Below are positions 1-50,165 of a DNA stretch of 64,000 bases, one piece after another. The notes under the pieces were generated by a model. That model was given only the letters and a program-made list of their open reading frames with translations, was not told the DNA's origin and searched no databases. The stretch is from contig JAAHII010000001.1 of NCBI GenBank assembly GCA_010671905.1, forward strand, positions 2,728,001 to 2,792,000, given 5' to 3'. Both the position numbers and the translations under genes were made by a program. Within the stretch, counting starts at the first letter, position 1. Each line of letters starts with the position of its first letter. This stretch comes from Leptolyngbya sp. SIOISBB (GTDB lineage: Bacteria > Cyanobacteriota > Cyanobacteriia > Phormidesmidales > Phormidesmidaceae).

Positions 1-68
1 AGGGGCTACCATAACCAACAGGCGTTGGCAGCTCGCACGCAACGCTGCAGGCAGTTCATCGAGTTGGC

Positions 69-2831
69 ATGCAGATCCTTTCCGTTACGCTCAAAAATTT
101 CAAAACTCACCAGGACAAGCATTTCACCTTTGCGCCCGGGACGAATGCCATTTGCGGCGAGAACGGGGCTGGCAAAACCAGCATTTTAGAAGCGATCGCC
201 TGGACCCTCTTCAACTACATAGGCGACTACGCCAAAGATGACTTAATTCGTAACGGCAGCAGCAGTGCTGAGGTGACGGTGGAGTTCATCTCCAACCATG
301 ACGAGCGGACGTACACAGTCCAACGTCACACCAATAAGGGTTACACGATTTTTGACCCCCAGCTGAACGAGCGATTGCCCTATACCCGCATCAAAGACGA
401 GGTGCTGCCTTGGTTACGCGATCATCTAGGGGTTTCCCCGGGCACTGATTTGGGTGAACTCTTTGCTCGCACCGTGGGCGTCCCCCAGGGCACCTTCACG
501 GCTGACTTTTTGCAATCAGCCGAAAATCGGAAAGCGGTTTTTGACAAGGTCCTCAAGGTCGAGGAGTACAAAACCGTCTATAAAGACCTGAACAGTCTGC
601 GCCGGTTGGCCGAAGCCAAAGTGACCGCTGTGGAGACTGAAGTCGCCGGGTATGAAGAGCAACTCGCCGGTTGGGATGCCCTACAAGCGCGTCATCAACA
701 GGTGAACACCGCCATCAACCAGAGTGAAGCTCAAATTAAAACCCTGGCAACCCAATTAGCGACCCTCCAAAAAGAACGGGATGCGCTCAAAGCTCAGGCC
801 GATCAGGTCCAGCAGTTGCAAACGCAGCGCCAGCAGGCCCAGGCCCAACTAGATGGCCAACAGCAGGCGATCGCCCTTCTGACCCAAACCTTAAATCAGG
901 CCCAAGCAGCAGCGAAAATTTGCGCCGAGACGCACGCCGCTTATCAGGCCTATCAGGAGGCTGAACAGGCACTAGAGTCCCTAAATCAGCAACAAACTGA
1001 GCGCCAATCCTGCCAAAAAAAACAACAGCAGTTACAAAAAACCCTCGATACCCGCGCCGCTGACCTGACCCGACTCAAAGTACAGCTGGAAGGCTTTGAA
1101 ACCGCAGCCCAAGAAATCCAGCAGTTACAGCCCCAAATCCAGCAACAAACCGAGTTGGAGGCACAACTCAAAGACCTGCAGCAACAGCAAACAGCCCTCG
1201 CACAGGTGCGCGGTGAACTGCAGGCGAGTGAAAAACAGTCCCGCCAACAATCCCAGCAAATTGAGCAACGACAGCAAGACCTGGCTCAGCTACAGGCTCT
1301 AGAAACCGCTGTCGCCACCCTACCCGAGGTCGAACAGCGGCGCGATCGCCTGCAGCAGCAACTCAGTCGCATTGCCGCCGCCCAACAGTTTGAGGCAGAG
1401 CTCCAGCAGTTGGTGCAGCGAGGTAAAACTACCTGCGATCGCCACCAAGCCGAAGCTACTGCGGCCCTGGAGACGTTAGCCGATTTGCAGCAAAGCATCC
1501 CGCTCTTATCGGCGGAATCCATCAAAGCTCTGCAATCAACCTTAGAGTCTGGCGTCCAGGTGAATCGAACCATGGTGGCCGACGTGGAACAAATCTTGGT
1601 CGACCTCTCCGCCCAGACCGATTCGGAACGCTTGCGATCGCAGCTGCAAGAGACGCAACAGAGCCTCGCCGACCTCAGTAAACAGCAGGCGACCCTCGCC
1701 ACCCGTCCCGACAAACAGCAGCAGCTCGCCCACTTACAAGAACAACAGCTTGCGTTAGCCAAGCACACCCAGCAATTGCAGGCACAGCTTGCCACTGAGG
1801 AATCGCTAGCGACTCAACTCACCACGACCCAGGCAACTTTGGCACAGCTCGAAAACCCCAAAGGGCGCAGTGCCGTGTTGACCAAATCACTCAAGCAGCA
1901 AACCAGTGTGCAAAAACGCTACGACGAAATGCAAGCCGCCCAAACCGGCATTCAAAAACAAATTGACGCCCTGGCAAACCAGCTAGCCTCCTTTGTTGAT
2001 CTGGATGAAGCGATCGCCACCCAAAACCAAGCCAAACAAACCCACCAAGCAGGCTATCTGCAATATCTGCAAAATGCTCAGTCGGCTCAAGCGGCTGACC
2101 GTTTAACCACAGAGTTAGCGGCTGCCCAAACCACGCTAACCGCACAGCAACAAGCCCGCGACCAAATCCAGGCTCAGCTTGATAAGGTCCAAGCCAATTT
2201 CGACCCACAAAAAGCACAGGCCGTTGATACGACGTATCAAACCGTGCGATCGGAGCGCGATCGCCTCGCGGGCGGCTTACCTAGCCAGCAGCAAATGCAG
2301 CAAGAATTACAGCGCCAACTCGATAGCCTGAAAGACTTGGCCCACAAGCGTGAGACAGCCCTTGAGGAACGCAAACAGCGCGAGCGCGTTAAGCGCTTTA
2401 TCAACTTTGCCCGCAAAGCCTATAAAGAGGCCGGTCCTCGGATTACGGAACGCTATGTGCGGCAGATTTCTAGGGAGGGCGATCGGCTCTTCCGAGAATT
2501 GCTCAATCGCCCCAATGTCGCCCTCACCTGGACACGGGATTACGAAATTCTGGTGCAAGAAGGCCCCAACACCCGCCGTTTTGTCAATTTGTCTGGGGGC
2601 GAGCAAATGTGTGCCGCGCTAGCAGTCCGCCTGGCGCTCCTCAAAGTGTTGGCCGATATTGACATTGCCTTTTTTGATGAACCCACCACCAACATGGACC
2701 GGTCACGTCGCGAGAGCCTGGCCGAAGCGATCGCTCGGATCCGTAGCTTCAATCAACTCTTCGTCATCAGCCATGATGACACGTTTGAAAAAGTGACGGA
2801 AAACGTCATCGTCGTTGAGCGCGATAGCTAA
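69..2831 (+). CDS. SbcC/Rad50-like SMC-family ATPase
   Basis: A 920-residue protein with the layout of SbcC/Rad50. The N-terminus (MQILSVTLKNFKTH) is the first strand of the ABC head, followed by Walker A GENGAGKTS near residues 31-39. A very Gln/Ala-rich coiled coil spans roughly residues 180-780. The C-terminal half of the head has the ABC signature LSGGEQM, Walker B IAFFDEPT and the switch His in VISHDD. Proteins of this family tether and process DNA ends together with an Mre11/SbcD- or NurA-type nuclease. I see no CxxC zinc hook in the middle of the coil, unlike classical Rad50. An in-frame stop at 12-14 closes the frame upstream and the first ATG matches the family start, although no clear ribosome-binding site precedes it. 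The nuclease partner, if adjacent, lies left of the window. Confidence 0.9.
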   Translation: MQILSVTLKNFKTHQDKHFTFAPGTNAICGENGAGKTSILEAIAWTLFNYIGDYAKDDLIRNGSSSAEVTVEFISNHDERTYTVQRHTNKGYTIFDPQLNERLPYTRIKDEVLPWLRDHLGVSPGTDLGELFARTVGVPQGTFTADFLQSAENRKAVFDKVLKVEEYKTVYKDLNSLRRLAEAKVTAVETEVAGYEEQLAGWDALQARHQQVNTAINQSEAQIKTLATQLATLQKERDALKAQADQVQQLQTQRQQAQAQLDGQQQAIALLTQTLNQAQAAAKICAETHAAYQAYQEAEQALESLNQQQTERQSCQKKQQQLQKTLDTRAADLTRLKVQLEGFETAAQEIQQLQPQIQQQTELEAQLKDLQQQQTALAQVRGELQASEKQSRQQSQQIEQRQQDLAQLQALETAVATLPEVEQRRDRLQQQLSRIAAAQQFEAELQQLVQRGKTTCDRHQAEATAALETLADLQQSIPLLSAESIKALQSTLESGVQVNRTMVADVEQILVDLSAQTDSERLRSQLQETQQSLADLSKQQATLATRPDKQQQLAHLQEQQLALAKHTQQLQAQLATEESLATQLTTTQATLAQLENPKGRSAVLTKSLKQQTSVQKRYDEMQAAQTGIQKQIDALANQLASFVDLDEAIATQNQAKQTHQAGYLQYLQNAQSAQAADRLTTELAAAQTTLTAQQQARDQIQAQLDKVQANFDPQKAQAVDTTYQTVRSERDRLAGGLPSQQQMQQELQRQLDSLKDLAHKRETALEERKQRERVKRFINFARKAYKEAGPRITERYVRQISREGDRLFRELLNRPNVALTWTRDYEILVQEGPNTRRFVNLSGGEQMCAALAVRLALLKVLADIDIAFFDEPTTNMDRSRRESLAEAIARIRSFNQLFVISHDDTFEKVTENVIVVERDS

Positions 2832-6301: not shown

Positions 6302-9300
6302 ATGTATGTAAATGATTTTAGCGATAAACAGACAGGTATTGAACTAGATGATGATTTTCCAGTTTGGTCTATTGAGCAATGGAATAACAGCTATAGTCAG
6401 TGGAAAAAACTTGCAGATCCTGAAGCTTCTGTAGATTCATCGCTTCCAGTCCTTGATTTTTCATTTGATGGGGGACAGGCTCAAGACTTAAGCGGCAATG
6501 GAAATGACGGCACTATTGTTAACGGACTACCAACTTTTGGAAAAAATCGACGGGGAATGCTTTTTGTGGGTAGCGGCACACAAATTGTGGTTCCCAACAA
6601 TAAGAACCTTCGCCTGCGTAAAGGTATGACCCTCCAAGGATGGGTTTATGCCAACAGCCTAAGACAAATTGACAAATTTTCATTTCTTGACAGAGAAGAT
6701 TACGAAGAAATCGAAGATCCGAGGCAGTGTGTGCGAAGAGATGGAACCTCAGGAAACACCTACTCGGCTGCATACTCATACCTCCAGGCCGTAAGGTCTG
6801 CCTTCTATCGATATGCTGATGCTTTAGAACTTGGGACTGAGACTGTACCTGCTGCCCGTAAAGATGCTTCGTTACTTTACAAATCGAGCAGTCGGATACG
6901 TATTGCTCCTCGAACAATAGAAGAGACCAATGTCAAAAGCAGTCAGGCTTATAGTCGGAGACGATCTCTCTTAGCAGAATTCGGCATTAGGACTTCGCTT
7001 GAGACAGATAGTCGTTTGTCAGGAATTCATTTAGCCATTGACGAACTATATGAAATCATTTTGGTCGATGATGCACCACCTGCATATGACTGGCGCGAAG
7101 AACCAGTTTTCCAAACTGCACCTAGCGTACTTGCAAAAATCAATTCATACGGCCTTGACGTCGATCCTCTGACAGGGTGTCCCTATGCAATAATTTTTGT
7201 CGGAAGAAAAATATTCAAGGTGATAAGCCAAACGCCAATCGAACGCTTTCGCTGGGTATTCCTTGCAGCAACTTACGATGGCAAAACGTTGGAGTTATAT
7301 GTTGACGGTGAACGGGCAGCACGAACTGAAGTCAATAAATCAACCGTAAAAGAGAAGGTTCCGACAGAGAACCTTGTACCAGATCTTCTAGGGCAGAAAG
7401 TTTCCCAAAGCAATCTCATTGATGAATCAGATAGTCCACTGTTTGTGGGTGAACTTCCATTCGACCAAGGTTATTCGGAAGGGATAATTGATGAGATTAA
7501 AGTTTTCGATTATCCTCGTTCAGCCGAAGCGATCGCTCGAGAATATTATCGAGCACGTCCATTGGCTACGTTTTCGTTCTACTCAGGTCGCACGGATGGT
7601 TCAGCTGGCCGTAAAGACATTGGTTTTACAGCAGGAGCTGCATCGATTGTTTGTGACACACACATCAATAGTCAAGGAAAATCCCAAGGCAAGGGAAATT
7701 GTTTATTATTGCCAGGATTCGACGCTGCATTTTTCTTTAATATCCACGAGCTACAGGAAAGATGGCAAACTCCGTATCCAACAGTAGCTATCGAGCCAGA
7801 AGCTAACTCTGGTTCGATCACCTTTCAAGCATGGGTAAATCCACAAAAGGCACCATCCAATTTTCCCACCAACACCGATGTAGGCACAGTGCCGCAGATA
7901 TTGTTTGCTCAAGGTTCACCACCCTATAACCCATTCTGGCTTCGATTAGACAGCACAGGCAGATTGGTTTGGACGGTCAGGCTCCACGGATCAGAAATAA
8001 CGCTCATCGCTCTCAAGCCGCTTGAAGCCGGACACTGGCAGTCGATTGCGGCAACCTACAATGAGTTTGATGGCATTATGCGACTCTTTATTGGTGGCAT
8101 GCCTGTAGGTGCTAAGCCCACTCCTTGGCTTGGTTGTCCATTAGAAATTGATTGGGCAGGTGGGTTTTATGCAGGTGGTCCGACGCCTTACTGCCCAGCG
8201 ATTAAGATGGACGAAATAACGCTCTATCCATTTGCCCGAACCAGAGAGGAAATAGCGCGAGATGCGACCTATTTCGATGATCCGTGCGGGGTGAGGCAAC
8301 CAGGGTTGTTTCCGTCGCAGTCGCCAGTCGATGGATATGGAGGTATACAGGATGCACTTGACCAACCTATCCAAACGCAGCCAGGTGGTCTACTCGACTG
8401 TAGCAGAGCGATTTGCAATGATGAACAGTGGAATAACTGGCAACAAGGCGGCTTTGTCGGTAATTTCTCCGACGTCACGATCGATCCTACTGGGGGAACG
8501 GGAACTGTTCCAAATTGTTCTATTGCTAAATGTACGCCAGAGGCCTACGCTGCATGGCTGGCACATGAGCAGGAACAACGGAACCTGGTAAGCGCTTATC
8601 AACAAACCAGTATCGATTGTTCTATTGCCAGATGTACAGAGGAACAGTCTGCTGTTTATGAAAGGCAGATATGGCAGCAATACGAGGCAGCACTAAAGCA
8701 AGCGTTCGATACTACACCTCCTGATCAGGATGAGTGCGGACCAATTAACTGTTGCCCTGCACCTTTCGCTCAAACAGCTTCGGAGGATGCTGGTGTTACT
8801 AACGAAGAAAGTACGGGAGATGATAGTGATAAGACATCGACGGAAGAAACTTCAGAAGACTCAGATGAGGAGAAGCCGCCTAAGTCCAATGTGACAGTTA
8901 GTACCTCTGAGGTGGATGAGTCAGGCAACACATTTATCAGAGGAGTGCGTTGGAAGGGCGGCCCTCGAGATGGACAAAGGGTATCAGGGGAATGGACTTG
9001 GACGGTATATTTTGAAGATGGTTCGACCGCCAATTACCAAATAATGTGCTACGAGGGCGACTGTCTAGTCTCAACTGGCAATGAGGATGATTTAGCAACA
9101 GGTGATGGTGGTGATGCATTACCGACTGATGACGCCCAAGTCGAAGACTCCCCTGATGACAACCAAAGCGATACCAGTGGTACTGGAACATCACCGGATA
9201 CAGGAGGGACAGCCGATACTAACAACCCAGAAGTCGATTCGATATTGTCGGATACTGGTACAGGTCAACGCTTAGAGCCGACCTTCGATCCCCTGGCAGA

Positions 9301-10597
9301 CGCGCAGCGATCGCCCTGGGATCAATGGCCCCCAGGTACTGGAGAATTTGGTCCTGGAACTGGGCAAGGAATTGGTGGTTCGGGTGCTGGTGGGGTTAGT
9401 GGTGGCGACGGTGTAGCCCCTGGCCTCTTGGGAAATAGAAACCGTGGCATCATGAGTCTGCATGATGTTAACGAGTTCCTAACAGATCCTGGGAGCTATG
9501 GTTATGGAACCCATAATATGGGGGAAGGAACCGCTTACCATACCCCCCATAACTTCGTCGTTCCAGTCAAGTTTATTGAGAATGGATTTATCCAGAATTC
9601 GGTGCTCGAATCCCTTATGGGTGAGGGGCGTTTTAGTTCACCAGAAGGCTCTCGCCCAGAATCAGAACCTTCTGGTGAGAATTCTCAACGAAAGCGCCTA
9701 CGAGAGAAAGTTAATGGTGCTTTGGGAGATCTTTCAGGACGTGGTGGCGGTGATACGACCTCCCAATCTTTGATGGCTGTACTACAGATAGCAGCAGCAA
9801 GGTTGTTTCCTAATAGGGAGCCCGATCCAGAAGCAGAGCAGAACCTAGAAACTTTACTCGACATCATAACTGGATTCACTCCCTTCGTTAACGATGCTCG
9901 TGACTTATATGAGCTGTTGACTGGCAAAGATATGATCACGGGTCAGTCTTTGCAAGATTGGGAGCGAGCAATGGCTTTATTAGGTTTAATTTTGGGGTCT
10001 GGGGTTGCTTGGCGAAAAATGCTCGAAGAGTTAGCAGAAACCTTCCGATATTTTCCATTTTTCCGCAATTCTGACGAAGTAATTGCTATTGCTCGAGCTG
10101 AGGCCGAATTCATTGAATCCTTGAACCTAGAGACGACGATTAAGCCCCGAGGGCTAACAGCTAAACAGCGAAGTAAGAAATGGGGGCGTTATCAAATTGA
10201 AACAAATAATGGAAAGAATGTAGAGTACACTGCGAAATTTAAATACGATCTCAAAAAAGACAACTGGTTTGAAGGAGGTGGGCGATTCCCTAGACATGTT
10301 TTACAAATAGACGGATTTGAAAAAGTGGGTGGCAAAATTTTTGCCATTGAAGCAAAGTATATCGATCCCAAAGCTAAAGTAGCTAATTCTTTTCATAATA
10401 AGAATCTTTCAAGAGCAATTGCTCAAGCTCAAAAATACCAACGTTTTCTCCTTGAAAACCCAAGTGTAGAAGCTGTTGTCTACAGATGTAATACGCCAGA
10501 GCTAGCTGATCACTTTAGAACTAAGGTCATTGGTCAATTGTCTTCTGAGATGCGCAGCAAGTTTAGAGTAGAAGTTGTACCTGCATCTTTTGATTGA
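6302..10597 (+). CDS. LamG-domain polymorphic toxin-like protein with C-terminal REase-fold nuclease
   Basis: A protein of about 1431 residues. Two LamG/concanavalin-like jelly rolls come first: about residues 45-415, starting LDFSFDGGQAQDLSGNGNDG, with WVFLAATYDGKTLELYVDG and a roughly 170-residue insertion; and about 420-670, with WQSIAATYNEFDGIMRLFIGG. Three Cys motifs of the form (D/N)CSxAxC follow, then an acidic Ser/Gly/Thr-rich linker. A pre-toxin (PT-TG-like) helical segment at about 1163-1245 contains FTPFVNDARDLYELLTGKD. The final 180 residues look like a PD-(D/E)XK nuclease toxin, with D1337 and E1350-A-K1352 in LQIDGF and AIEAKYID. Pre-toxin plus nuclease tip is the standard polymorphic-toxin plan. 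I see no signal peptide, so the export route is unknown. The ATG at 6302 is chosen for its AAGGA site rather than an upstream TTG. No immunity gene is recognisable downstream. Confidence 0.8.
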   Translation: MYVNDFSDKQTGIELDDDFPVWSIEQWNNSYSQWKKLADPEASVDSSLPVLDFSFDGGQAQDLSGNGNDGTIVNGLPTFGKNRRGMLFVGSGTQIVVPNNKNLRLRKGMTLQGWVYANSLRQIDKFSFLDREDYEEIEDPRQCVRRDGTSGNTYSAAYSYLQAVRSAFYRYADALELGTETVPAARKDASLLYKSSSRIRIAPRTIEETNVKSSQAYSRRRSLLAEFGIRTSLETDSRLSGIHLAIDELYEIILVDDAPPAYDWREEPVFQTAPSVLAKINSYGLDVDPLTGCPYAIIFVGRKIFKVISQTPIERFRWVFLAATYDGKTLELYVDGERAARTEVNKSTVKEKVPTENLVPDLLGQKVSQSNLIDESDSPLFVGELPFDQGYSEGIIDEIKVFDYPRSAEAIAREYYRARPLATFSFYSGRTDGSAGRKDIGFTAGAASIVCDTHINSQGKSQGKGNCLLLPGFDAAFFFNIHELQERWQTPYPTVAIEPEANSGSITFQAWVNPQKAPSNFPTNTDVGTVPQILFAQGSPPYNPFWLRLDSTGRLVWTVRLHGSEITLIALKPLEAGHWQSIAATYNEFDGIMRLFIGGMPVGAKPTPWLGCPLEIDWAGGFYAGGPTPYCPAIKMDEITLYPFARTREEIARDATYFDDPCGVRQPGLFPSQSPVDGYGGIQDALDQPIQTQPGGLLDCSRAICNDEQWNNWQQGGFVGNFSDVTIDPTGGTGTVPNCSIAKCTPEAYAAWLAHEQEQRNLVSAYQQTSIDCSIARCTEEQSAVYERQIWQQYEAALKQAFDTTPPDQDECGPINCCPAPFAQTASEDAGVTNEESTGDDSDKTSTEETSEDSDEEKPPKSNVTVSTSEVDESGNTFIRGVRWKGGPRDGQRVSGEWTWTVYFEDGSTANYQIMCYEGDCLVSTGNEDDLATGDGGDALPTDDAQVEDSPDDNQSDTSGTGTSPDTGGTADTNNPEVDSILSDTGTGQRLEPTFDPLADAQRSPWDQWPPGTGEFGPGTGQGIGGSGAGGVSGGDGVAPGLLGNRNRGIMSLHDVNEFLTDPGSYGYGTHNMGEGTAYHTPHNFVVPVKFIENGFIQNSVLESLMGEGRFSSPEGSRPESEPSGENSQRKRLREKVNGALGDLSGRGGGDTTSQSLMAVLQIAAARLFPNREPDPEAEQNLETLLDIITGFTPFVNDARDLYELLTGKDMITGQSLQDWERAMALLGLILGSGVAWRKMLEELAETFRYFPFFRNSDEVIAIARAEAEFIESLNLETTIKPRGLTAKQRSKKWGRYQIETNNGKNVEYTAKFKYDLKKDNWFEGGGRFPRHVLQIDGFEKVGGKIFAIEAKYIDPKAKVANSFHNKNLSRAIAQAQKYQRFLLENPSVEAVVYRCNTPELADHFRTKVIGQLSSEMRSKFRVEVVPASFD

Positions 10598-43764: not shown

Positions 43765-45444
43765 TTACCACTGCAGCGTCGGGTCAGGATCAGGACATGC
43801 CGGCAGCAACTTGCAAATAAACGCCAGAATGCAGACCTCGTCCGCTTGGGTCAATCGCTCTTGCACCGTCTTGGTTCCTTGCGGAGTGGGTTTTGAGGGC
43901 CGGGGCTGCACGGGCGTCACCGGGAGTATCGGTCGCACAATCGCCGCCTTTTGCAGTCGCAGAAATGCGTCAGAGAGCTGAGCAGCATTACTGGGGTTAG
44001 GCTTCATCTTGACCGTTGACACCGGCTGCACTGTTGGCGAGACTCGCCAGTTAGCAGACTGCGCCGTGAACACTTTAGGCGTAGCCTGAAACGTCTGCTT
44101 TGTCCCAGTGACAGCCTGTAAAGATTGGGTTTGCCGGGGAGACATCCTGACAGTCGTAGCCGCCGCCAGATGCACCGAGCGTGCCGACGGCTGAACCTGC
44201 CGCGATCGCGGTTGCGCAGACTTGGGGTTGCTATTCCCGGCGGGCGCGGTCACCTTTACCTTATGAGCCAACTGAGGATTGAGCAAGGGATTCTGTTTCA
44301 GGGTTGTGTACTGGGGCTGGAGCTTGACCATGGGTTGCACTTGCAGCGCCTGCATCGCGGTAGAGAACTGCAGTGAATTGCCAGTTTTGCCCGGCTTTGA
44401 ATTGCTCGGCGGCTTAGATGTGCTGACCTGTTTCTCCACCACAATATTGCGAGCAAAGACCACCGCCGTCGTATAGGCCGGGCACACCCCTACCGGCGGC
44501 GACTGCCCGTCCGACAGTTTTTTATGTTGGTCTAAAAATCGCCAGAATTTGGCCGCAAACACGTCCGCATCCAACCAGGGACGCAGCACCGCTGCGGAGC
44601 TAAATTCAAATGTGATCGACGTAATATCGGAATCTTGCAGATCGGCAGCGAGTCGCTGCTTGAGTTTGGCAGGTGCTTGCTCCAGCATTTTGGGAATTTC
44701 ATCCGCCGTCAACGTGAATGTTTGCCAGGCTCCCTCATCAATCGCGTTCATCGGCGAAAAGCTACTGGGAAAGAACTGCACATTATCCGTCCCCGTAATT
44801 TGGTCGATGTCTTGATTAAAGTGCGATCGCCAATCTTGCCAAGTCAGGCTCGGAGACTTGGCTCCCAATCGCGCTTTAATCCCCTGAGCTTGCTCTACTT
44901 CATGCTTGTAGCCATCGGTAATCCATTCTGTTTCTAAGTTCTGAATGGCCTGGCGAAGTTGGGGTTTTTCCACGGTCAACCAATGATTTTTGAGCACCGG
45001 ATCAGCCGTGGTTTCGCCAGTGCTTTTGGCCGCCGCATAGCGCTCTTGCAACACAAAGAGCTGATCGCGATATTGCTTGTAGCGCTTGTATGCTTCGGTA
45101 TCTTCTCCCGCTGTGGTCTGCAACAGTTGGGAAGCAGCCTGATATTGCTCCTCTTCGCGATCGGTGCGAGCTGACCAGGCCACTTCCGTCTCGACGCCAT
45201 TCAAGACGTCGTCATAAATGTCCCACAGGGCGCGATCGCTCGTCGGCAACCAGGCTTCTCCATCAGGAATCGAGTTCACCAGCAGCGAAAAGGCTTTGAG
45301 ATCGTCGTAGTCCATGTCCGAGACAAAATCGAGAGTCTCCTTAGAGAACGTCAACGGCGTCACAGGAAAGCTTAAAAAGGTCTTGTCATTGCCAAATACT
45401 TTTTTGGCCTTTGTCATGAGGGCTAGTTGAGTAGTCGTATCCAT
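43765..45444 (-). CDS. Unknown protein, paralogue of the 526-aa protein (559 aa)
   Basis: A 559-residue protein of unrecognised family. The structured part (1-340) shares blocks in the same order with the 526-aa product at 46.4 kb: residues 23-41 (FLSFPVTPLTFSKETLDFVS) with 35-54; 174-183 (WITDGYKHEV) with 245-254; 275-292 (ITFEFSSAAVLRPWLDAD) with 373-390; 322-337 (PAYTTAVVFARNIVVE) with 424-439. A Gln/Thr/Pro-rich low-complexity stretch (341-525) replaces the Gly/Ser loops of the paralogue. The final residues, FICKLLPACPDPDPTLQW, match the paralogue's tail. There is no signal peptide or membrane helix. It is the last gene of a leftward three-gene cluster, 971 bp after its paralogue. Confidence 0.8.
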   Translation of the reverse strand: MDTTTQLALMTKAKKVFGNDKTFLSFPVTPLTFSKETLDFVSDMDYDDLKAFSLLVNSIPDGEAWLPTSDRALWDIYDDVLNGVETEVAWSARTDREEEQYQAASQLLQTTAGEDTEAYKRYKQYRDQLFVLQERYAAAKSTGETTADPVLKNHWLTVEKPQLRQAIQNLETEWITDGYKHEVEQAQGIKARLGAKSPSLTWQDWRSHFNQDIDQITGTDNVQFFPSSFSPMNAIDEGAWQTFTLTADEIPKMLEQAPAKLKQRLAADLQDSDITSITFEFSSAAVLRPWLDADVFAAKFWRFLDQHKKLSDGQSPPVGVCPAYTTAVVFARNIVVEKQVSTSKPPSNSKPGKTGNSLQFSTAMQALQVQPMVKLQPQYTTLKQNPLLNPQLAHKVKVTAPAGNSNPKSAQPRSRQVQPSARSVHLAAATTVRMSPRQTQSLQAVTGTKQTFQATPKVFTAQSANWRVSPTVQPVSTVKMKPNPSNAAQLSDAFLRLQKAAIVRPILPVTPVQPRPSKPTPQGTKTVQERLTQADEVCILAFICKLLPACPDPDPTLQW

Positions 45445-45583
45445 AGCGAATTCCAGGTAAAAGGTCGGTAGTGCAGGGGCGATCGTGATGTCGAGACAGG
45501 TAGCCCAGCGTTGTTAGCTGCCAGTTACAAATTAGGGAAAGCGATGCCGGTAATGGCTTCTCAAACATCCCTGCGCGGGAGAA

Positions 45584-45623
45584 ACCTCACCGCCTGCGGC
45601 ACCTCTCCTTCCCAGCAGAGGTT
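45584..45623. repeat. Dispersed repeat copy 1 (acctcaccgcctgcggcacc type)
   Basis: This stretch resembles 48101-48142 (acctcaccgtctgcagcacc and on). Each copy sits in the gap upstream of one of the two large paralogous genes. Pyrimidine-rich CCTCTCCTT blocks are shared. The function is unknown. Confidence 0.55.
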
Positions 45624-45668
45624 TATGCACATCTCTGTGAGACTGAAAAATGCTGCATTGGCCCCCTT

Positions 45669-45802
45669 TATCCCCCCAACTTTGGGGAAGACCGGAGTTC
45701 ACAGTCCCCCAGAATTGATACCGCTGGCGAAGTCAACATTTAGAAACACTGGCTGAGTAGCAACCGTTTTCGAGGCCCCCCAGCCCCCAACTTTGGGGGA
45801 GC
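45669..45802. repeat. Two CCCCCAACTTTGGGGG palindromes
   Basis: Short hairpins at about 45671-45688 and 45783-45799 have the same CCCCCAAC-TTTGGGGG sequence. Such palindromes are scattered in many cyanobacterial genomes. They lie in the gap between the 559- and 526-aa genes. Confidence 0.6.
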
Positions 45803-46020
45803 AAGGGTCAGAAGTCTCCCGAAGTCAGGTGATTTAGGGGACAGATGAGGCGTGGGCAAGTTTACGAAATATTTCGCCAGTAGTATCAGAATTGGGGATG
45901 TAGGGGACGAGATCTCTAGAAATGATCAACCAGAAACGGATGTATCAGCGGCAGCCTTACCCAGGAGAAATTTATCCAAAGTCTGCGGTAGGGATGAACC
46001 CACATTCCAATCAGGCTACG

Positions 46021-46190
46021 GCTTATACATAAGTCATTCGTTTAGAACACACATGAGGTTCGATCCCCTCAATCCCCCCCTTAAAAAGGGGGGAAATCCC
46101 AGTTTGAATCGGATAAAGCCCCCTTAAAAAGGGGGCAGCGACAGCGGGGGATCTGCCATTTGCGCTGAGTTCTAGAGATGTGTATAAGCG
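46021..46190. repeat. 170-bp palindromic element with CCCCCTTAAAAAGGGGG hairpins
   Basis: The ends are inverted (GCTTATACA at 46021 and TGTATAAGC at 46181-46189, each with an inner TAGAAC/GTTCTA). Inside are two palindromes, C7-TTAAAAA-G6 (46074-46093) and C5-TTAAAAA-G5 (46119-46135). The right end (tgtataagcggcagcctta) is repeated in direct orientation at 45941-45959. It has a MITE-like structure without coding capacity. Confidence 0.55.
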
Positions 46191-46375
46191 GCAGCCTTAG
46201 TCAGGAGAGGCTAGATGAGGTTCTCAAAGCGGCAAAACTGCCTTGCCCGATCTGCCAGCCCTTCTCCTGATCAGCGATCAGACCCTTTCGAATAAGGGAT
46301 AGGTCAGACTTGGATGAAGAAAGCAACATGGCTCGCCAATCGAAAGGTCAGCAAACTGCTTGAGGCATGGGGAAG

Positions 46376-46393
46376 GCCCCCGAAATCGGGGGC
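46376..46393 (-). terminator. Hairpin after the 526-aa gene
   Basis: A perfect GCCCCCGATTTCGGGGGC stem-loop lies 23 bases beyond the stop codon of the leftward gene. No T-tract follows, so it may act as a weak terminator or an mRNA 3'-end stabiliser. Confidence 0.5.
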
Positions 46394-46415
46394 TGTAGAC
46401 CAGAGCAACGAATGG

Positions 46416-47996
46416 CTAGATCCAGTCGGTGATCTCTGGTAAGGGATCGGGAGATTTCGGCAGTACGTGGCACTTAAAGCCGATGATTTGCATACCCGGC
46501 ACTTTCATGGACTTGCCGTCATATTCATAACCATGCTCAGACGTCGTTTCTCCAGAACTGCTCCCTCGGCTGTGGGAACCCCCCAAATTAAATGGGCCAA
46601 AGGATAAGAAGCCACCGCCCTTAGCTCGCGAACTTTCAGACTGGGAAATGTAATCCGAGAAGCCCTTACTTTGCCCCAGGTGCAGCTCCAGGTCCTTAAT
46701 CACCAACATCGATGTGGGATAAGCCGGAATCTTACCCTTGGGAGGCGTACCGCCATCGCTGATCATTTCTGACTTCGCCTGCGGATTGTTCTGATCCATC
46801 CGGATGCACTTGCTCGTTAAAAACGCCGTGCTCAACCAAGGCTGGCTGATAAATACCTGCGCAATCTTAAAGGACAATCGGAAGTTACTCGTATCAAACG
46901 ACACGTGGGATTCGTAATCGCGGCTAGAGCTGCTGCCACTGCCGCCGCCACCGACATTAAACAGACCCAAGCTAAAGCCCCCACCCCCTCGCGTTGAGGC
47001 ATATTTGGAGTTGTAGCTAGAGTTGCGATAACGGCGATATTCGGAAGACCGAAAACCATACTCAGTCCACCCAGCCGACTTGGTAAAGTTACTCGGCACC
47101 AGCGTCGTGTAATAGAAATCGCTCCCCGAGGCAATGCCTGTCAGCTTCGCCTTGAGCAAATCATCCCGATATTGCTCTTTTAGCAGCGACATATCGCGCC
47201 GCATCACCTGATCGATGAAGGCGTGGATCTTCTCGTAGTCATTCTTGTAGCCATTGGAAACCCAATCGGCCATCGCCGCTCGAACGCGATTGCGCAGAAT
47301 ATTGGCATTGAGCGACCAGTAATGGACATCTTCGGGACTAGTGGCCGCCAACGCTTTGATCCGCCGGGCGTTATATTCCAATGCCGCCGCTTCGTAGGCC
47401 GCCAGTTTCTCGTGATAGATTTTCACCATCGGGCTGTCGTCAGTCACCTCTTTTTCAATAAAGGTGGCAGTCTCCAGATCGAGTTCTTTCTCAATCTTGG
47501 TTGTCGTCAAGAGGCCTCGCAGCCGTTTAATCTTGGCTTTGACATCATCCGGTAGCTCGTTATGCATCACCTGAGTCATGTCCATGATGTATTCGTAACG
47601 ATCAGAGAGGGAGCCCTCATTGTTCATAACGCTCATCTGGGCAAATTGATTATTCGTGCCCGCCACATCGGGAACAAAATCCACCATGCGCGCAAAGCTT
47701 TCTGCTTGGGTGTAAAGGCGACTCGTATCAGCAGCCCGCAGTTGGTCAATCAACTCTGGCGTTAACTCAGGGGGATTTTCCCCTGACAAAATCTCCTGAA
47801 CCGCTTCTTTGGTGACCGTACCCGTTAGTCCCTGAGACAAAAAGTCAAAGTCTTCAGGGCGAAGGGGAATGCCGACAGAGCACCAGCTAAAGAAATTATC
47901 TTCAGACTTTGGCACTGTGTCATCACCATTGGTCAAAATATCGTAAATTCCAGCAACGATGGAATTTGCTAAAGCACTTGGTTTTTCAAAAGACAT
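46416..47996 (-). CDS. Unknown protein with paired Gly/Ser-rich loops (526 aa)
   Basis: A 526-residue protein of unrecognised family, with a strong AAAGGAG before the ATG. An all-helical N-terminal half (about 1-290) is followed by a beta-rich half with two similar Gly/Ser loops: residues 337-358 (GGGGFSLGLFNVGGGGSG then SSSS) and 460-482 (GGGFLSFGPFNLGGSHSRG then SSSG). Both read GGGF-x-x-G-x-F-N-x-GG-x-S-rich. A Tyr/Arg/Ser-rich run (EYRRYRNSSYNSKY) precedes the first loop. Strands share blocks with the 559-aa paralogue, and the tail FKCHVLPKSPDPLPEITDWI matches that paralogue's tail. There is no signal peptide or membrane helix. Flexible Gly/Ser hairpins in beta proteins can insert into membranes or mediate assembly, but that is speculation here. 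Confidence 0.82.
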   Translation of the reverse strand: MSFEKPSALANSIVAGIYDILTNGDDTVPKSEDNFFSWCSVGIPLRPEDFDFLSQGLTGTVTKEAVQEILSGENPPELTPELIDQLRAADTSRLYTQAESFARMVDFVPDVAGTNNQFAQMSVMNNEGSLSDRYEYIMDMTQVMHNELPDDVKAKIKRLRGLLTTTKIEKELDLETATFIEKEVTDDSPMVKIYHEKLAAYEAAALEYNARRIKALAATSPEDVHYWSLNANILRNRVRAAMADWVSNGYKNDYEKIHAFIDQVMRRDMSLLKEQYRDDLLKAKLTGIASGSDFYYTTLVPSNFTKSAGWTEYGFRSSEYRRYRNSSYNSKYASTRGGGGFSLGLFNVGGGGSGSSSSRDYESHVSFDTSNFRLSFKIAQVFISQPWLSTAFLTSKCIRMDQNNPQAKSEMISDGGTPPKGKIPAYPTSMLVIKDLELHLGQSKGFSDYISQSESSRAKGGGFLSFGPFNLGGSHSRGSSSGETTSEHGYEYDGKSMKVPGMQIIGFKCHVLPKSPDPLPEITDWI

Positions 47997-48100
47997 AATG
48001 GTCTCCTTTTAGGAATGTTGAGTTTGCAGAAACAAAGAATTGACTGTTTTGTGGTTAAACCTCATCCAGAGTCAGAAGTGGAGTTTTGACAGCTGGTACA

Positions 48101-48190
48101 ACCTCACCGTCTGCAGCACCTCTCCTTCTCTAGAAGAGGCTTAACTAGACTCTGATTCCTCTCCTTGAGAAGGAGAGGTTAGGTGAGGTT
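48101..48190. repeat. Inverted repeat with CCTCTCCTTGAGAAGGAGAGG hairpin (copy 2)
   Basis: The left arm acctcaccgtctgcagcacc(tctcctt...) at 48101 faces a right arm at about 48158-48190, which itself contains a perfect CCTCTCC-TTGAGAA-GGAGAGG hairpin and ends gttaggtgaggt. It lies in the gap between the 179-aa and 526-aa genes and could act as a partial terminator or processing site within the cluster. Confidence 0.6.
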
Positions 48191-48231
48191 TTCCCAAACA
48201 AGCCCAACTCCAGTTGTCAACTTGGACGTGG

Positions 48232-48771
48232 TTAGAACTTGCCAACCCAGTAGAGAATTTCGTATTTCCAGGTCGACCAGCCCAGGCCTTCTTCCTCAAA
48301 ATCCCAGCGGTGCAGGGTCCAACCATCGGGGATTTGGTTGACCGCAAAAGGCTTGAGCAGCGTGCCCAACTCATCATCTTTATCGAGCCGCACCGCAGCG
48401 TCTGCCGCTTCGACGGTTAACGAACCGACGGTAGCCACCCGAGGATTCGGAACAGTTGCCAAGGCCTTATCGATCGCTTTTTTAGCCTGTTCGTAATCAC
48501 TGGCCGTCTTAGCGGTGTCTTCATCCATCGCAGTCATTTCAATCTGAAAAAGGCCATTTCTGGGTAACTGTTGGTCAAAGACATAGCCCCCACCCGGCCC
48601 AAATTTCAGGTTCTCATCATCATTGATATTGATCGGGCGAGTCACAAATCCTTCAGAGGTTTGGCTATCAGAGGTTTTGACTGCGCCAATCACATAAACT
48701 TCGTCTTTGCCAGTTTTATCTTCGGTGTCGCGGCACCGAACTTCGTCTAAGTAAACAACAACTCTAGGCAT
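48232..48771 (-). CDS. Small C2-like/beta-sandwich candidate, first gene of the unknown cluster (179 aa)
   Basis: A 179-residue protein with AAAGGAGA before the ATG. The N-terminus (RVVVYLDEVRCRDTEDKTG, then KDEVYVIGAVKTS) has the alternating strands and acidic loops of C2-like beta-sandwich proteins. In such folds the Asp/Glu cluster binds calcium. A helix (DYEQAKKAIDKALATVP) and a Trp-rich C-terminal strand (HRWDFEEEGLGWSTWKYEIL) follow. There is no signal peptide. It heads the leftward cluster with the 526- and 559-aa proteins. The C2 assignment rests on pattern only, and calcium or lipid binding is inference. Confidence 0.7.
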   Translation of the reverse strand: MPRVVVYLDEVRCRDTEDKTGKDEVYVIGAVKTSDSQTSEGFVTRPININDDENLKFGPGGGYVFDQQLPRNGLFQIEMTAMDEDTAKTASDYEQAKKAIDKALATVPNPRVATVGSLTVEAADAAVRLDKDDELGTLLKPFAVNQIPDGWTLHRWDFEEEGLGWSTWKYEILYWVGKF

Positions 48772-50165
48772 CAGGAATCTCCTTTGTGAGTGATTTGCAT
48801 GCCTTGAAAAAGTTCAGTTAAAACTCTTTAGGGGCAATATGAGCTGTATCCATAAGCGATTAAGTCTTATGTGACTGCATCATGGCAACTTCACAAAAGA
48901 AATGAGAATACTCAGTCAGGGTGCTTTTAAGTCATGATTCATCTCATCAGCATCTAGCCTTACTTACTAGAGATTTCTGGCTCTCATAATAGATTTTTGT
49001 GATAGCTTCAAAAAGGTTTGTCAAATTCATTGCCTACACTCGTCAGAAGCGGAATTCCAGATTTTTCTCGGACTTTGAAAATAATTAGTTGGGGTGTTAT
49101 CAGATCTTTTAATCCTGATATAGGAATTGCCTTGAAGCCTAATTCTCTATCGAGCCTCTAGCGGCAAGTGATATGCCCAGAAAAAAGTTTCCAGAGTTTA
49201 TTCGAAAAGCACTGAGTGTGAATCAAGCACACTTTCCGGAAAAATAAGGTAATTTGCAATATCTGTTTGAGAAGCAGAGGCGAGGGCAAAGCGATCGCAA
49301 TGAGCAAGGTCAATTTCGTTAGATGACATCAACTCAGATTGTTTGCCCGCAGTAGACTATTCGACAGGTACCCGATCAGGGGGATGGTGTCATCTGTAGC
49401 AGCTCCAGAAATGTCCAAAACGGTTTTTATCTCTTAATGAACAGTTCAGTAAGACCAATAAGGGAGAGCCACATCTGGTTGACTGATAAAAGTTAGGCAA
49501 ATTGTACAGAGAAAGGAGCAGCGCCCGAATGCTGACCATTGTGAGATTTGCTGGTGCTGCTTGCAAGAAGCCGTCGCCGGGTCAGGTTCATCATTACCCT
49601 AGAAACAGATGGGTTGAATTAAGCGCCATCTGTCTTGTAAAACCGTCTTAACCCATTCGCCGCCAATGCGAAATAGCTGTTGCGGCGAAATGCCGCACCG
49701 CAGTCGGTCGGTCTCAATAACGGCTGCTTCCTGACGCTATGACAGGCAGCGTAAGAAAGCACCAACGCCAAGATCAAAAAGGGTAGAAGGCAAGTTGCAA
49801 AAGTAGTGAAGTTGTTCCAACGGTTCTAGACATCGTCTGACGCGTCTTTGCTAATGCCTCGGCACGGAATATCGTTGATCTCCTGGATCAGGTCAACTTC
49901 ATCTAGCTGGGGGAGTTGTCACCATCCACAAACAGGTAGGCAGGTGGCCGAGGTGTGTCCAGTCGTAATCTTGCTCCAAGCAACTCATCAGGACATGGTA
50001 GAGGTGGGAGATTGTTGACAATATTTTGGAACTTTGAATTGTGTCTGATTCTAGAATGCTGACTTCCTTGGAATCTGCTCACTGGACTGGCCAGAAAGCG
50101 GTCCAGCGATATTAAGACACAACTTTGATCAGTCCAGCAGCTCCTGAACACTTAGCTCGTGTTGT
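48772..50165. other. 1.4-kb intergenic region upstream of the unknown cluster
   Basis: This is the longest gene-free stretch in the window. It must carry the promoter of the 179-aa gene and the 3' end of the glycosyltransferase operon. A frame at 49903-50151 on the minus strand has non-protein-like composition and is not called. A minus-strand segment near 49620-49790 shows short protein-like runs but no intact frame, possibly a remnant. No tRNA, strong terminator or repeat array was found. Confidence 0.45.

What the first reader, a model, noticed from the sequence alone, without database searches (positions are those of the whole stretch)
43765..48771. Three-gene cluster of unknown function built on two diverged paralogues and a C2-like protein
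Seen: three leftward genes (179, 526, 559 aa) without recognisable domains, with strong ribosome sites on the first two. The 526- and 559-aa proteins share sequence blocks in the same order (FxS-PL-DFxS near the N-terminus; W(V/I)(S/T)(N/D)GYK; PW(L) after a beta strand; AY(P/T)T before another strand) although overall similarity is low. The small protein looks like a C2-type beta sandwich. Inference: the three act together, possibly as a surface or membrane-active complex. I know of no described system with this composition.
Basis: partly seen in the sequence, partly recalled or inferred. Interest (0 to 1): 0.75.

Follow-up and report, generated by a model that had tools for sequence, protein, structure and literature searches.

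The report
Paired pore-like proteins, function unproven
Two of the three genes are ancient sister genes that travel together through very different microbes, sometimes beside enzymes that cut cell walls, proteins or lipids, and they look like an undescribed membrane-piercing pair; the third gene is an occasional companion.

Summary
The three genes are real. B (526 aa) and C (559 aa) are paralogues: profile-profile probability 100%, E 4.4e-54 over 347 columns. No Pfam, NCBIfam or PHROGs model matches either convincingly. They form a conserved pair: C lies beside B in 39 of 43 loci from cyanobacteria, Nitrospirota, Bacteroidota, proteobacteria, Paenibacillus, an actinobacterium and an archaeal MAG. 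C occurs in 16 of the 17 relatives with a B match; the 17th has only a remote larger form. Protein A (179 aa) is not part of the unit: it was found beside B in three genomes of one genus and elsewhere without B or C.

Best explanation (inferred): B is a beta-pore former. Two Gly/Ser-rich, charge-poor inserts interrupt its beta core; weak structural hints point to gasdermins. C keeps the core but lacks insert 1, and would be the partner. In at least 14 of 43 loci a neighbour encodes a peptidase, lipase, phosphoesterase, murein enzyme, or peptidoglycan-binding, hemopexin or LGFP protein, partly as in bacterial gasdermin operons (PMC9612521). No solved fold matched significantly; pore formation needs experiment.

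The parts
48232..48771 (-). Gene A, 179 aa, accessory protein with no known domain; found beside B in three genomes of one genus only
46416..47996 (-). Gene B, 526 aa, proposed pore-forming member of the pair
43765..45444 (-). Gene C, 559 aa, paralogue of B, proposed partner; no equivalent of insert 1, a Pro/Gln-rich linker in place of insert 2
46881..47051 (-). B residues 316-372: insert 1, Gly/Ser-rich and charge-poor, candidate membrane hairpin 1 (inferred)
46512..46679 (-). B residues 440-495: insert 2, Gly/Ser-rich with a G-P-F type tip, candidate membrane hairpin 2 (inferred, weaker)
47148..47438 (-). B residues 187-283: helical module with the W-x-x-x-G-Y-K block shared with C
44821..45162 (-). 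C residues 95-208: matching helical module
43981..44394 (-). C residues 351-488: low-confidence Pro/Gln-rich linker; in G006 this part of C is longer and holds DUF7452 repeats
48779..48785 (-). ribosome site of A (AAAGGAG)
48003..48009 (-). ribosome site of B (AAAGGAG)
48048..48229 (.). DNA between A and B that does not align to G003 (182 nt here against 5 nt there)
45635..46366 (.). DNA between B and C that does not align to G003 (about 730 nt here against about 270 nt there), repeat-rich

Best explanation
B and C are an inherited pair of paralogous soluble proteins that act together on a membrane. Shown: they are homologous, adjacent and co-inherited. Inferred: B carries a beta core with two long Gly/Ser-rich inserts that unfold into amphipathic hairpins; several B subunits, nucleated, capped or aimed by C (which keeps the core and the helical module but lacks insert 1 and has a linker at insert 2), assemble a beta-barrel pore from the cytosolic side. 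Where peptidases are encoded next door they would switch it on, and murein hydrolases and lipases without signal peptides would pass through or finish the job: a holin-endolysin-like or gasdermin-like lysis or release module. Protein A is an optional add-on in this genus. I saw no hydrolase beside the pair in the window, so activator and target here are unknown.
For: B-C paralogy, E 4.4e-54. Adjacency in 39 of 43 loci; of the four without C, two end at the contig edge. C present in 16 of the 17 relatives with a B match. B and C identity matrices over 35 loci correlate at 0.61, reached by 0 of 500 label permutations. Inserts (measured on residues 324-372 and 446-496): Gly+Ser 40% and 34% against 6% in a helical control; longest charge-free run 19.0 and 18.7 against 10.7 residues on average. 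Alternating hydropathy beyond shuffles (p<=0.05) in 44% of 43 rows for insert 1, 12% for insert 2, 0% in two control segments. Parts of both inserts have model confidence under 50 (327-360 and 475-486). Bacterial gasdermins are ranks 5 and 13 in Foldseek (7n50 E 0.43, 7n52 E 0.99), and gasdermin-E (9h5m, Z 4.5, rmsd 5.1, 168 aligned, model 9..518) is the only one of the 50 listed VIA rows to span the whole model. Neighbours in at least 14 of 43 loci: caspase C14 with trypsin, papain C1, C70 with patatin, patatin, CHAP, muramidase, M74 endopeptidase, peptidoglycan-binding, hemopexin, LGFP, metallophosphoesterase; multi-member families of this sort were rarer in 75 background genes. No signal-peptide-like start, by a hydropathy proxy, in 43 of 43 B rows at the start codon nearest the match and in 33 of 36 C rows.
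Against: No structural match is significant: best Foldseek E 0.18, 7n50 at E 0.43, no VIA Z of 8 or more for B. The B model is moderate (pLDDT 70.8). Insert 2 shows little alternation (12%). The N-terminal cysteine of most bacterial gasdermins is absent in 43 of 43 B rows. Relatives on a Sinorhizobium plasmid start with signal-peptide-like stretches, which points to export there; with the farthest possible start, 2 of 42 further B rows also would. Only at least 4 of 43 loci have a neighbouring protease, and the background genes also held murein enzymes (Peptidase_M15 in 3, Amidase_3 in 2, GH25 in 1). Some C proteins keep a G-P-F-like segment at insert 2. B is about twice as long as the solved bacterial gasdermin chain 7n50 (240 residues).
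Confidence: 0.42

Rival explanations
1. B and C are a released or secreted binary toxin or adhesin complex that acts on other cells, with hemopexin, LGFP, DUF7452 or peptidoglycan-binding partners giving target recognition and the hydrolases acting as cargo.
For: Hemopexin, LGFP and DUF7452 modules in or beside the pair; hemopexin is listed among predicted anti-eukaryotic effector domains of extracellular injection systems (PMC8213781, one passage); signal-peptide-like starts in Sinorhizobium relatives; two C proteins end in a membrane-like helix.
Against: By the hydropathy proxy B and most C rows have no signal-peptide-like start. No secretion-system family appears among the neighbour families shown, but that table was cut at 25 of 78.
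Confidence: 0.27
2. B and C are a non-lytic envelope or scaffold complex, for example a membrane-shaping or stress protein pair, and the neighbouring hydrolases reflect envelope maintenance.
For: Helical modules in both proteins, whose VIA matches are coiled coils and, for B, several F-BAR domains; murein enzymes among the neighbours and also in the background genes.
Against: Patchy presence (6 of 386 genomes of the phylum sample); a second, frame-split copy in the same genome; caspase, patatin and C70 peptidase neighbours do not look like housekeeping.
Confidence: 0.18
3. All three genes A, B and C form one obligatory complex.
For: A is adjacent, co-directional, well preserved and has a strong ribosome site in the window; it sits just before B in three genomes of one genus.
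Against: A and B overlap in only 1 of 386 phylum genomes; A occurs without B or C nearby in five other cyanobacteria and on an Allocoleopsis plasmid.
Confidence: 0.05

Closest known systems
Bacterial gasdermins (bGSDM)
   Same: No obvious signal peptide; two inserts interrupting a beta core (inferred); in some loci caspase-like, trypsin-like, amidase, lysozyme-type or phospholipase neighbours, as told for bGSDM operons (PMC9612521, passages and section 5); weak structural matches.
   Different: No sequence match, no N-terminal cysteine, about twice the length of the solved chain 7n50, a helical module inside the core, and a paralogous partner gene; most loci show no protease neighbour.
Fungal RCD-1-1/RCD-1-2 gasdermin pair
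   Same: Two related proteins; RCD-1 forms heterodimers that build the pore (PMC11760362, passages), as proposed here for B and C.
   Different: RCD-1-1 and RCD-1-2 are told as heteroallelic, not an operon; B and C are about 18% identical in the profile alignment and C lacks insert 1.
CDC-like proteins (CDCL short and long) and the MACPF/CDC superfamily
   Same: A short and a long protein cooperate in one pore; a core sheet with two segments that become membrane hairpins (PMC11952106, passages and section 10).
   Different: No Pfam match and only chance-level PDB sequence hits; parts of the B inserts are low-confidence loops rather than clear helical bundles; HTH and diglycine hinge not shown.
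Phage holin plus endolysin
   Same: Pore protein plus murein hydrolase logic; the murein-acting neighbours in the 14 loci have no signal-peptide-like start.
   Different: B and C are large soluble proteins, not small membrane proteins (recalled), and searches with B found no relative in viral contigs or phage records.

Membership tests
Gasdermin (bacterial) | sequence match to a gasdermin profile or chain | tested here: inconclusive
   No Pfam family at E<=1 for B or C, only chance-level PDB sequence hits; I did not verify that a bacterial gasdermin model is in that library
Gasdermin (bacterial) | twisted beta core with two extension hairpins | tested here: inconclusive
   Foldseek 7n50 E 0.43, 7n52 E 0.99; VIA 9h5m Z 4.5, rmsd 5.1, 168 aligned; model pLDDT 70.8
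Gasdermin (bacterial) | N-terminal cysteine for palmitoylation (majority of bGSDMs, PMC9612521 section 5) | tested here: not met
   0 of 43 B rows and 0 of 36 C rows have Cys in the first 12 residues
Gasdermin (bacterial) | adjacent activating protease | tested here: inconclusive
   C14 plus trypsin, C1 or C70 beside the pair in L071, L087, L077, L082, at least 4 of 43 loci; none seen in the window
Gasdermin (bacterial) | no signal peptide | tested here: met
   Hydropathy proxy only: 43 of 43 B rows at the start nearest the match, 33 of 36 C rows; Sinorhizobium relatives differ
Gasdermin (bacterial) | pore formation after cleavage | not testable with these tools
   needs protein
MACPF/CDC/CDCL | profile match | tested here: inconclusive
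   No Pfam family at E<=1; models in the library not checked one by one
MACPF/CDC/CDCL | two helical bundles that become hairpins, HTH and diglycine hinge (PMC11952106) | tested here: inconclusive
   Parts of the inserts have pLDDT under 50; a well-conserved SDGG lies before the third core strand but its place in the sheet could not be checked
RCD-1-type two-protein pore | two homologous proteins found together | tested here: met
   39 of 43 loci; 16 of the 17 relatives with a B match
RCD-1-type two-protein pore | heterodimer needed for pore | not testable with these tools
   no complex prediction or assay available

The most novel reading that the evidence does not exclude
B and C are the founding members of an undescribed, cross-phylum two-component pore family: an operon-encoded paralogue pair, structurally akin to gasdermins, that acts as a programmed lysis or release switch with interchangeable proteases, lipases and murein hydrolases as activators or effectors.
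Probability: 0.28. Interest if true: 0.82.

Novelty: new variant of a known kind. Interest (0 to 1): 0.6.

Why it matters
A conserved protein pair without a family model in the libraries searched, present in bacteria and an archaeal MAG and sometimes beside lytic enzymes, is a concrete gap in annotation. If it makes pores, it would add a two-gene, operon-encoded relative or analogue of gasdermins, and would let the question whether the gasdermin and MACPF/CDC lineages are linked be tested with a new candidate intermediate. It would also give unnamed proteins in cyanobacteria, Nitrospira and flavobacteria a first testable function.

Tried and rejected
Family scans (Pfam, NCBIfam, PHROGs, PADLOC) gave nothing convincing for A, B or C. 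PDB sequence searches with single proteins and profiles gave nothing or chance-level hits. A phage origin was considered and dropped: searches with B found no relative in viral contigs (11 stretches matched a pattern, none confirmed) or phage records. Foldseek of B against viral models gave nothing at E<=0.001. For C, Foldseek and VIA list mostly helical chains, which says nothing about its beta part. No MACPF, CDC or aerolysin chain is among the rows listed for B, which does not exclude them.

Corrections made on the way. My first gene picker dropped A in G002 and G003 because it overlapped an over-extended B frame; searches corrected this. The signal-peptide and cysteine proxies used rows cut at the match start (only 23 of 42 B rows began on a start codon), so I repeated them from real start codons: 0 of 42 at the nearest start, 2 of 42 (L051, L086, probably over-extended) at the farthest; the three C rows over the limit (L078, L079, L086) reflect a hydrophobic first helix. 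A loose pattern for the insert 1 tip matched only 19 of 43 rows and is not used; the insert 2 tip G[PIC][FLVI] is in 43 of 43, with 1.6 such motifs per protein overall.

What was left out of counts. Alignment A3 is the window plus 42 of the 43 loci (L079 was left out, being close to L078); A4 is the window plus 35 of the 39 loci with C (left out: L047 truncated, L061, L066 split, L089). Neighbours scanned together were 75 of 92: left out by hand were near-duplicates (L033, L057, L059, L060, L081), one short frame (L054) and two downstream genes of L089. The background was the first 76 of 92 genes drawn at random from 194, less L066:2885, which was scanned. Both tables were cut at 25 families (of 78 and 126), so single hits in the background may be missed.
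Full report
What is there. The window lies in an 8.34 Mb genome; close relatives of B (95% identity) are in two MAGs named Halomicronema, so the host is probably a Halomicronema-like cyanobacterium (inference). Three minus-strand genes are present as described. I call them A (179 aa), B (526 aa) and C (559 aa), in order of transcription. Ribosome sites are AAAGGAG for A and B and absent for C. Against G003 the codon differences are mostly synonymous: synonymous/nonsynonymous A 52/10, B 141/27, C 142/82. The window carries more DNA between A and B and between B and C than G003.

No known family. Pfam and PHROGs list nothing for A, B or C at E<=1; NCBIfam lists only hits at E 0.11 and 0.16 far below cut-off; PADLOC none at E<=0.01. 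PDB sequence searches give nothing or chance-level hits.

B and C are paralogues. BLAST finds them at E 1e-7 and 2.7e-7. Profile-profile comparison of 43 B rows with 36 C rows gives probability 100%, E 4.4e-54, 347 columns, from the first helix to just past the AYPT/AYTT block. The control, B against A, gives probability 0.07%. Predicted secondary structures follow the same order (my reading): first helix, strand, helical module, then core strands, in B near 311-315, 373-384, 425-439 and 496-511, in C near 241-245, 274-287, 323-339 and 536-546. Strand pairing could not be checked, as coordinates were not at hand.

The pair is the conserved unit. A scan of the genome collection (84,980 species) with one conserved peptide pattern gave 57 stretches, of which 43 encode B; the pattern does not sample all distant relatives. 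In a six-frame search C is adjacent on the same strand in 39 of 43. Two of the other four contigs end within about 70 bases of B (L074, L084); two have room but no C (L076, L085). In Paenibacillus the order is C, a small helical gene, B. In 115 related genomes B matches in 17 and C in 16; the 16 are the same genomes, and the seventeenth (G065) has a single 1062-residue remote form. Identity matrices of B and C over 35 loci correlate at 0.61; none of 500 permutations reached that. Distribution is patchy: 6 of 386 genomes of the phylum sample, some with remote forms only, and relatives in Nitrospirota, Bacteroidota, proteobacteria, Paenibacillus, Pedococcus and a Methanomethylovorans MAG, which fits horizontal spread; binning errors in MAGs are possible.

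A is a visitor. In 115 relatives A occurs in 3, all of one genus, just before B. In 386 phylum genomes it occurs in 6, and only the window genome also has B. In the five others, and on an Allocoleopsis plasmid, A or a doubled A stands without B or C in the stretch fetched.

Why a pore. Two stretches of B (about 316-372 and 440-495) lie between core strands. Measured on 324-372 and 446-496 they hold 40% and 34% Gly+Ser, against 6% in a helical control, and have longest charge-free runs of 19.0 and 18.7 residues against 10.7. In the window both carry a similar tip, GGGF followed by G-(L/P)-F. Alternation of polar and hydrophobic residues exceeds shuffles in 44% of 43 rows for the first and only 12% for the second, with 0% in two control segments, so the second hairpin is the weaker claim. 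Parts of the inserts have model confidence below 50 (327-360, 475-486). In C the first is replaced by short helices and the second by a low-confidence linker, though some C proteins keep a short G-P-F-like piece. The layout resembles gasdermins, where loops in place of helical bundles give the hairpins (PMC11952106, section 10).

Structure comparison. The B model has mean pLDDT 70.8 and pTM 0.75. Foldseek gives nothing significant (best E 0.18); bacterial gasdermins 7n50 and 7n52 are ranks 5 and 13 at E 0.43 and 0.99. VIA-align gives gasdermin-E (9h5m) Z 4.5, rmsd 5.1, 168 aligned residues over 9..518, the only one of the 50 listed rows that spans the protein; the others fall mainly on the helical part, 148-267. 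These are hints, not proof. C (pLDDT 75.5) matched mostly helical chains.

Neighbours. I called open frames around the loci and followed same-strand chains with gaps under 450 bases. Above Pfam's cut-offs, at least 14 of 43 loci have a neighbour that is a peptidase, lipase, phosphoesterase, murein enzyme, or peptidoglycan-binding, hemopexin or LGFP protein: L055, L058, L067, L068, L069, L070, L071, L072, L073, L077, L079, L082, L086, L087. Not every neighbour was scanned singly. Outside the 43: an Amidase_2 protein in G006 (L031) and Lipase_3 plus a peptidoglycan-binding protein beside a larger relative (L111). Examples are caspase C14 plus trypsin (L071; L087), papain C1 (L077), C70 peptidase plus patatin (L082), CHAP (L069, L070) and muramidase (L087). 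In the 14 loci these proteins have no signal-peptide-like start by hydropathy. As a control, 75 neighbours and 75 background genes were scanned together. Families with two or more members among neighbours were PG_binding_1 6, CHAP 4, Patatin 3, SH3_3 3, and C14, Hemopexin, LGFP, Trypsin, Trypsin_2, PG_binding_2 and DUF3048_C 2 each. Among the background they were Peptidase_M15_2 and M15_3 3, histidine kinase domains 3, MscL 2, Response_reg 2, Amidase_3 2, TPR, Rieske and others 2, with one GH25. Both tables were cut at 25 families. In the window I scanned the two genes downstream of C: a LuxR-type regulator and a GIY-YIG-like gene below cut-off; the glycosyltransferase-like genes upstream of A (named from sequence only) were not scanned.

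Comparison with the literature. PMC9612521 (passages and section 5 read) reports that bacterial gasdermins are often beside caspase-like and other proteases, that lysozymes and amidases are sometimes encoded nearby, names a phospholipase in one operon type, and suggests holin-endolysin mimicry. That list overlaps with ours. Fungal RCD-1 shows that two related gasdermins can form one heterodimeric pore (PMC11760362, passages). Bacterial gasdermin genes are reported in some cyanobacteria (PMC9950537, passages). Five searches of the open library that touched gasdermins and two on MACPF and LGFP/hemopexin showed, in the rows listed, no title or abstract start that describes this pair; many papers are not held and only the top rows were seen.

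Verdict. The pair is real, widespread and unnamed in the libraries searched. A gasdermin-like two-component pore is the best reading at about 0.4; an exported binary toxin or adhesin is the main rival. It is not filed as a gasdermin: the N-terminal cysteine was absent and the fold test inconclusive.

Noticed in passing
L034 (G000:C1:7432000-7449000), 7485-10561: A second, more distant B-C pair in the same genome; its B match is split over two overlapping frames.
   Followed up: partly
L071:7578-7916, L087:7541-7894, L082:4048-4446, L084:6777-7148: Small proteins (112-132 aa) that match only the helical module of B lie next to B in four loci.
   Followed up: partly
L035:3120-6308, L111:1152-3620, L112:4023-6614, L113:5569-8052: Single proteins of 822-1062 aa in other cyanobacteria carry a B-like C-terminal half with Gly/Ser-rich inserts; no separate C match was found in the stretches fetched.
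   Followed up: partly
L096:2817-6793: Sinorhizobium plasmid: three adjacent relatives whose starts look like signal peptides, with several genes annotated as TIR-domain proteins about 4 kb away.
   Followed up: no
L031:5387-7720: C of G006 is 778 aa and carries DUF7452 repeats; a very similar C lies in G034 (L033).
   Followed up: partly
L125:4526-5449 and L126:4678-5604: In two other cyanobacteria the A match is the C-terminal half of a 307-308 aa protein whose first half looks like a related repeat; no B or C in the stretch fetched.
   Followed up: no
L072:11089-12483: A hemopexin protein fused to an L,D-transpeptidase (YkuD_2) domain sits directly after C.
   Followed up: no
window 45635-46366 and 48048-48229: Repeat-like DNA with short inverted repeats (my reading) separates the three genes more widely than in G003.
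   Followed up: partly
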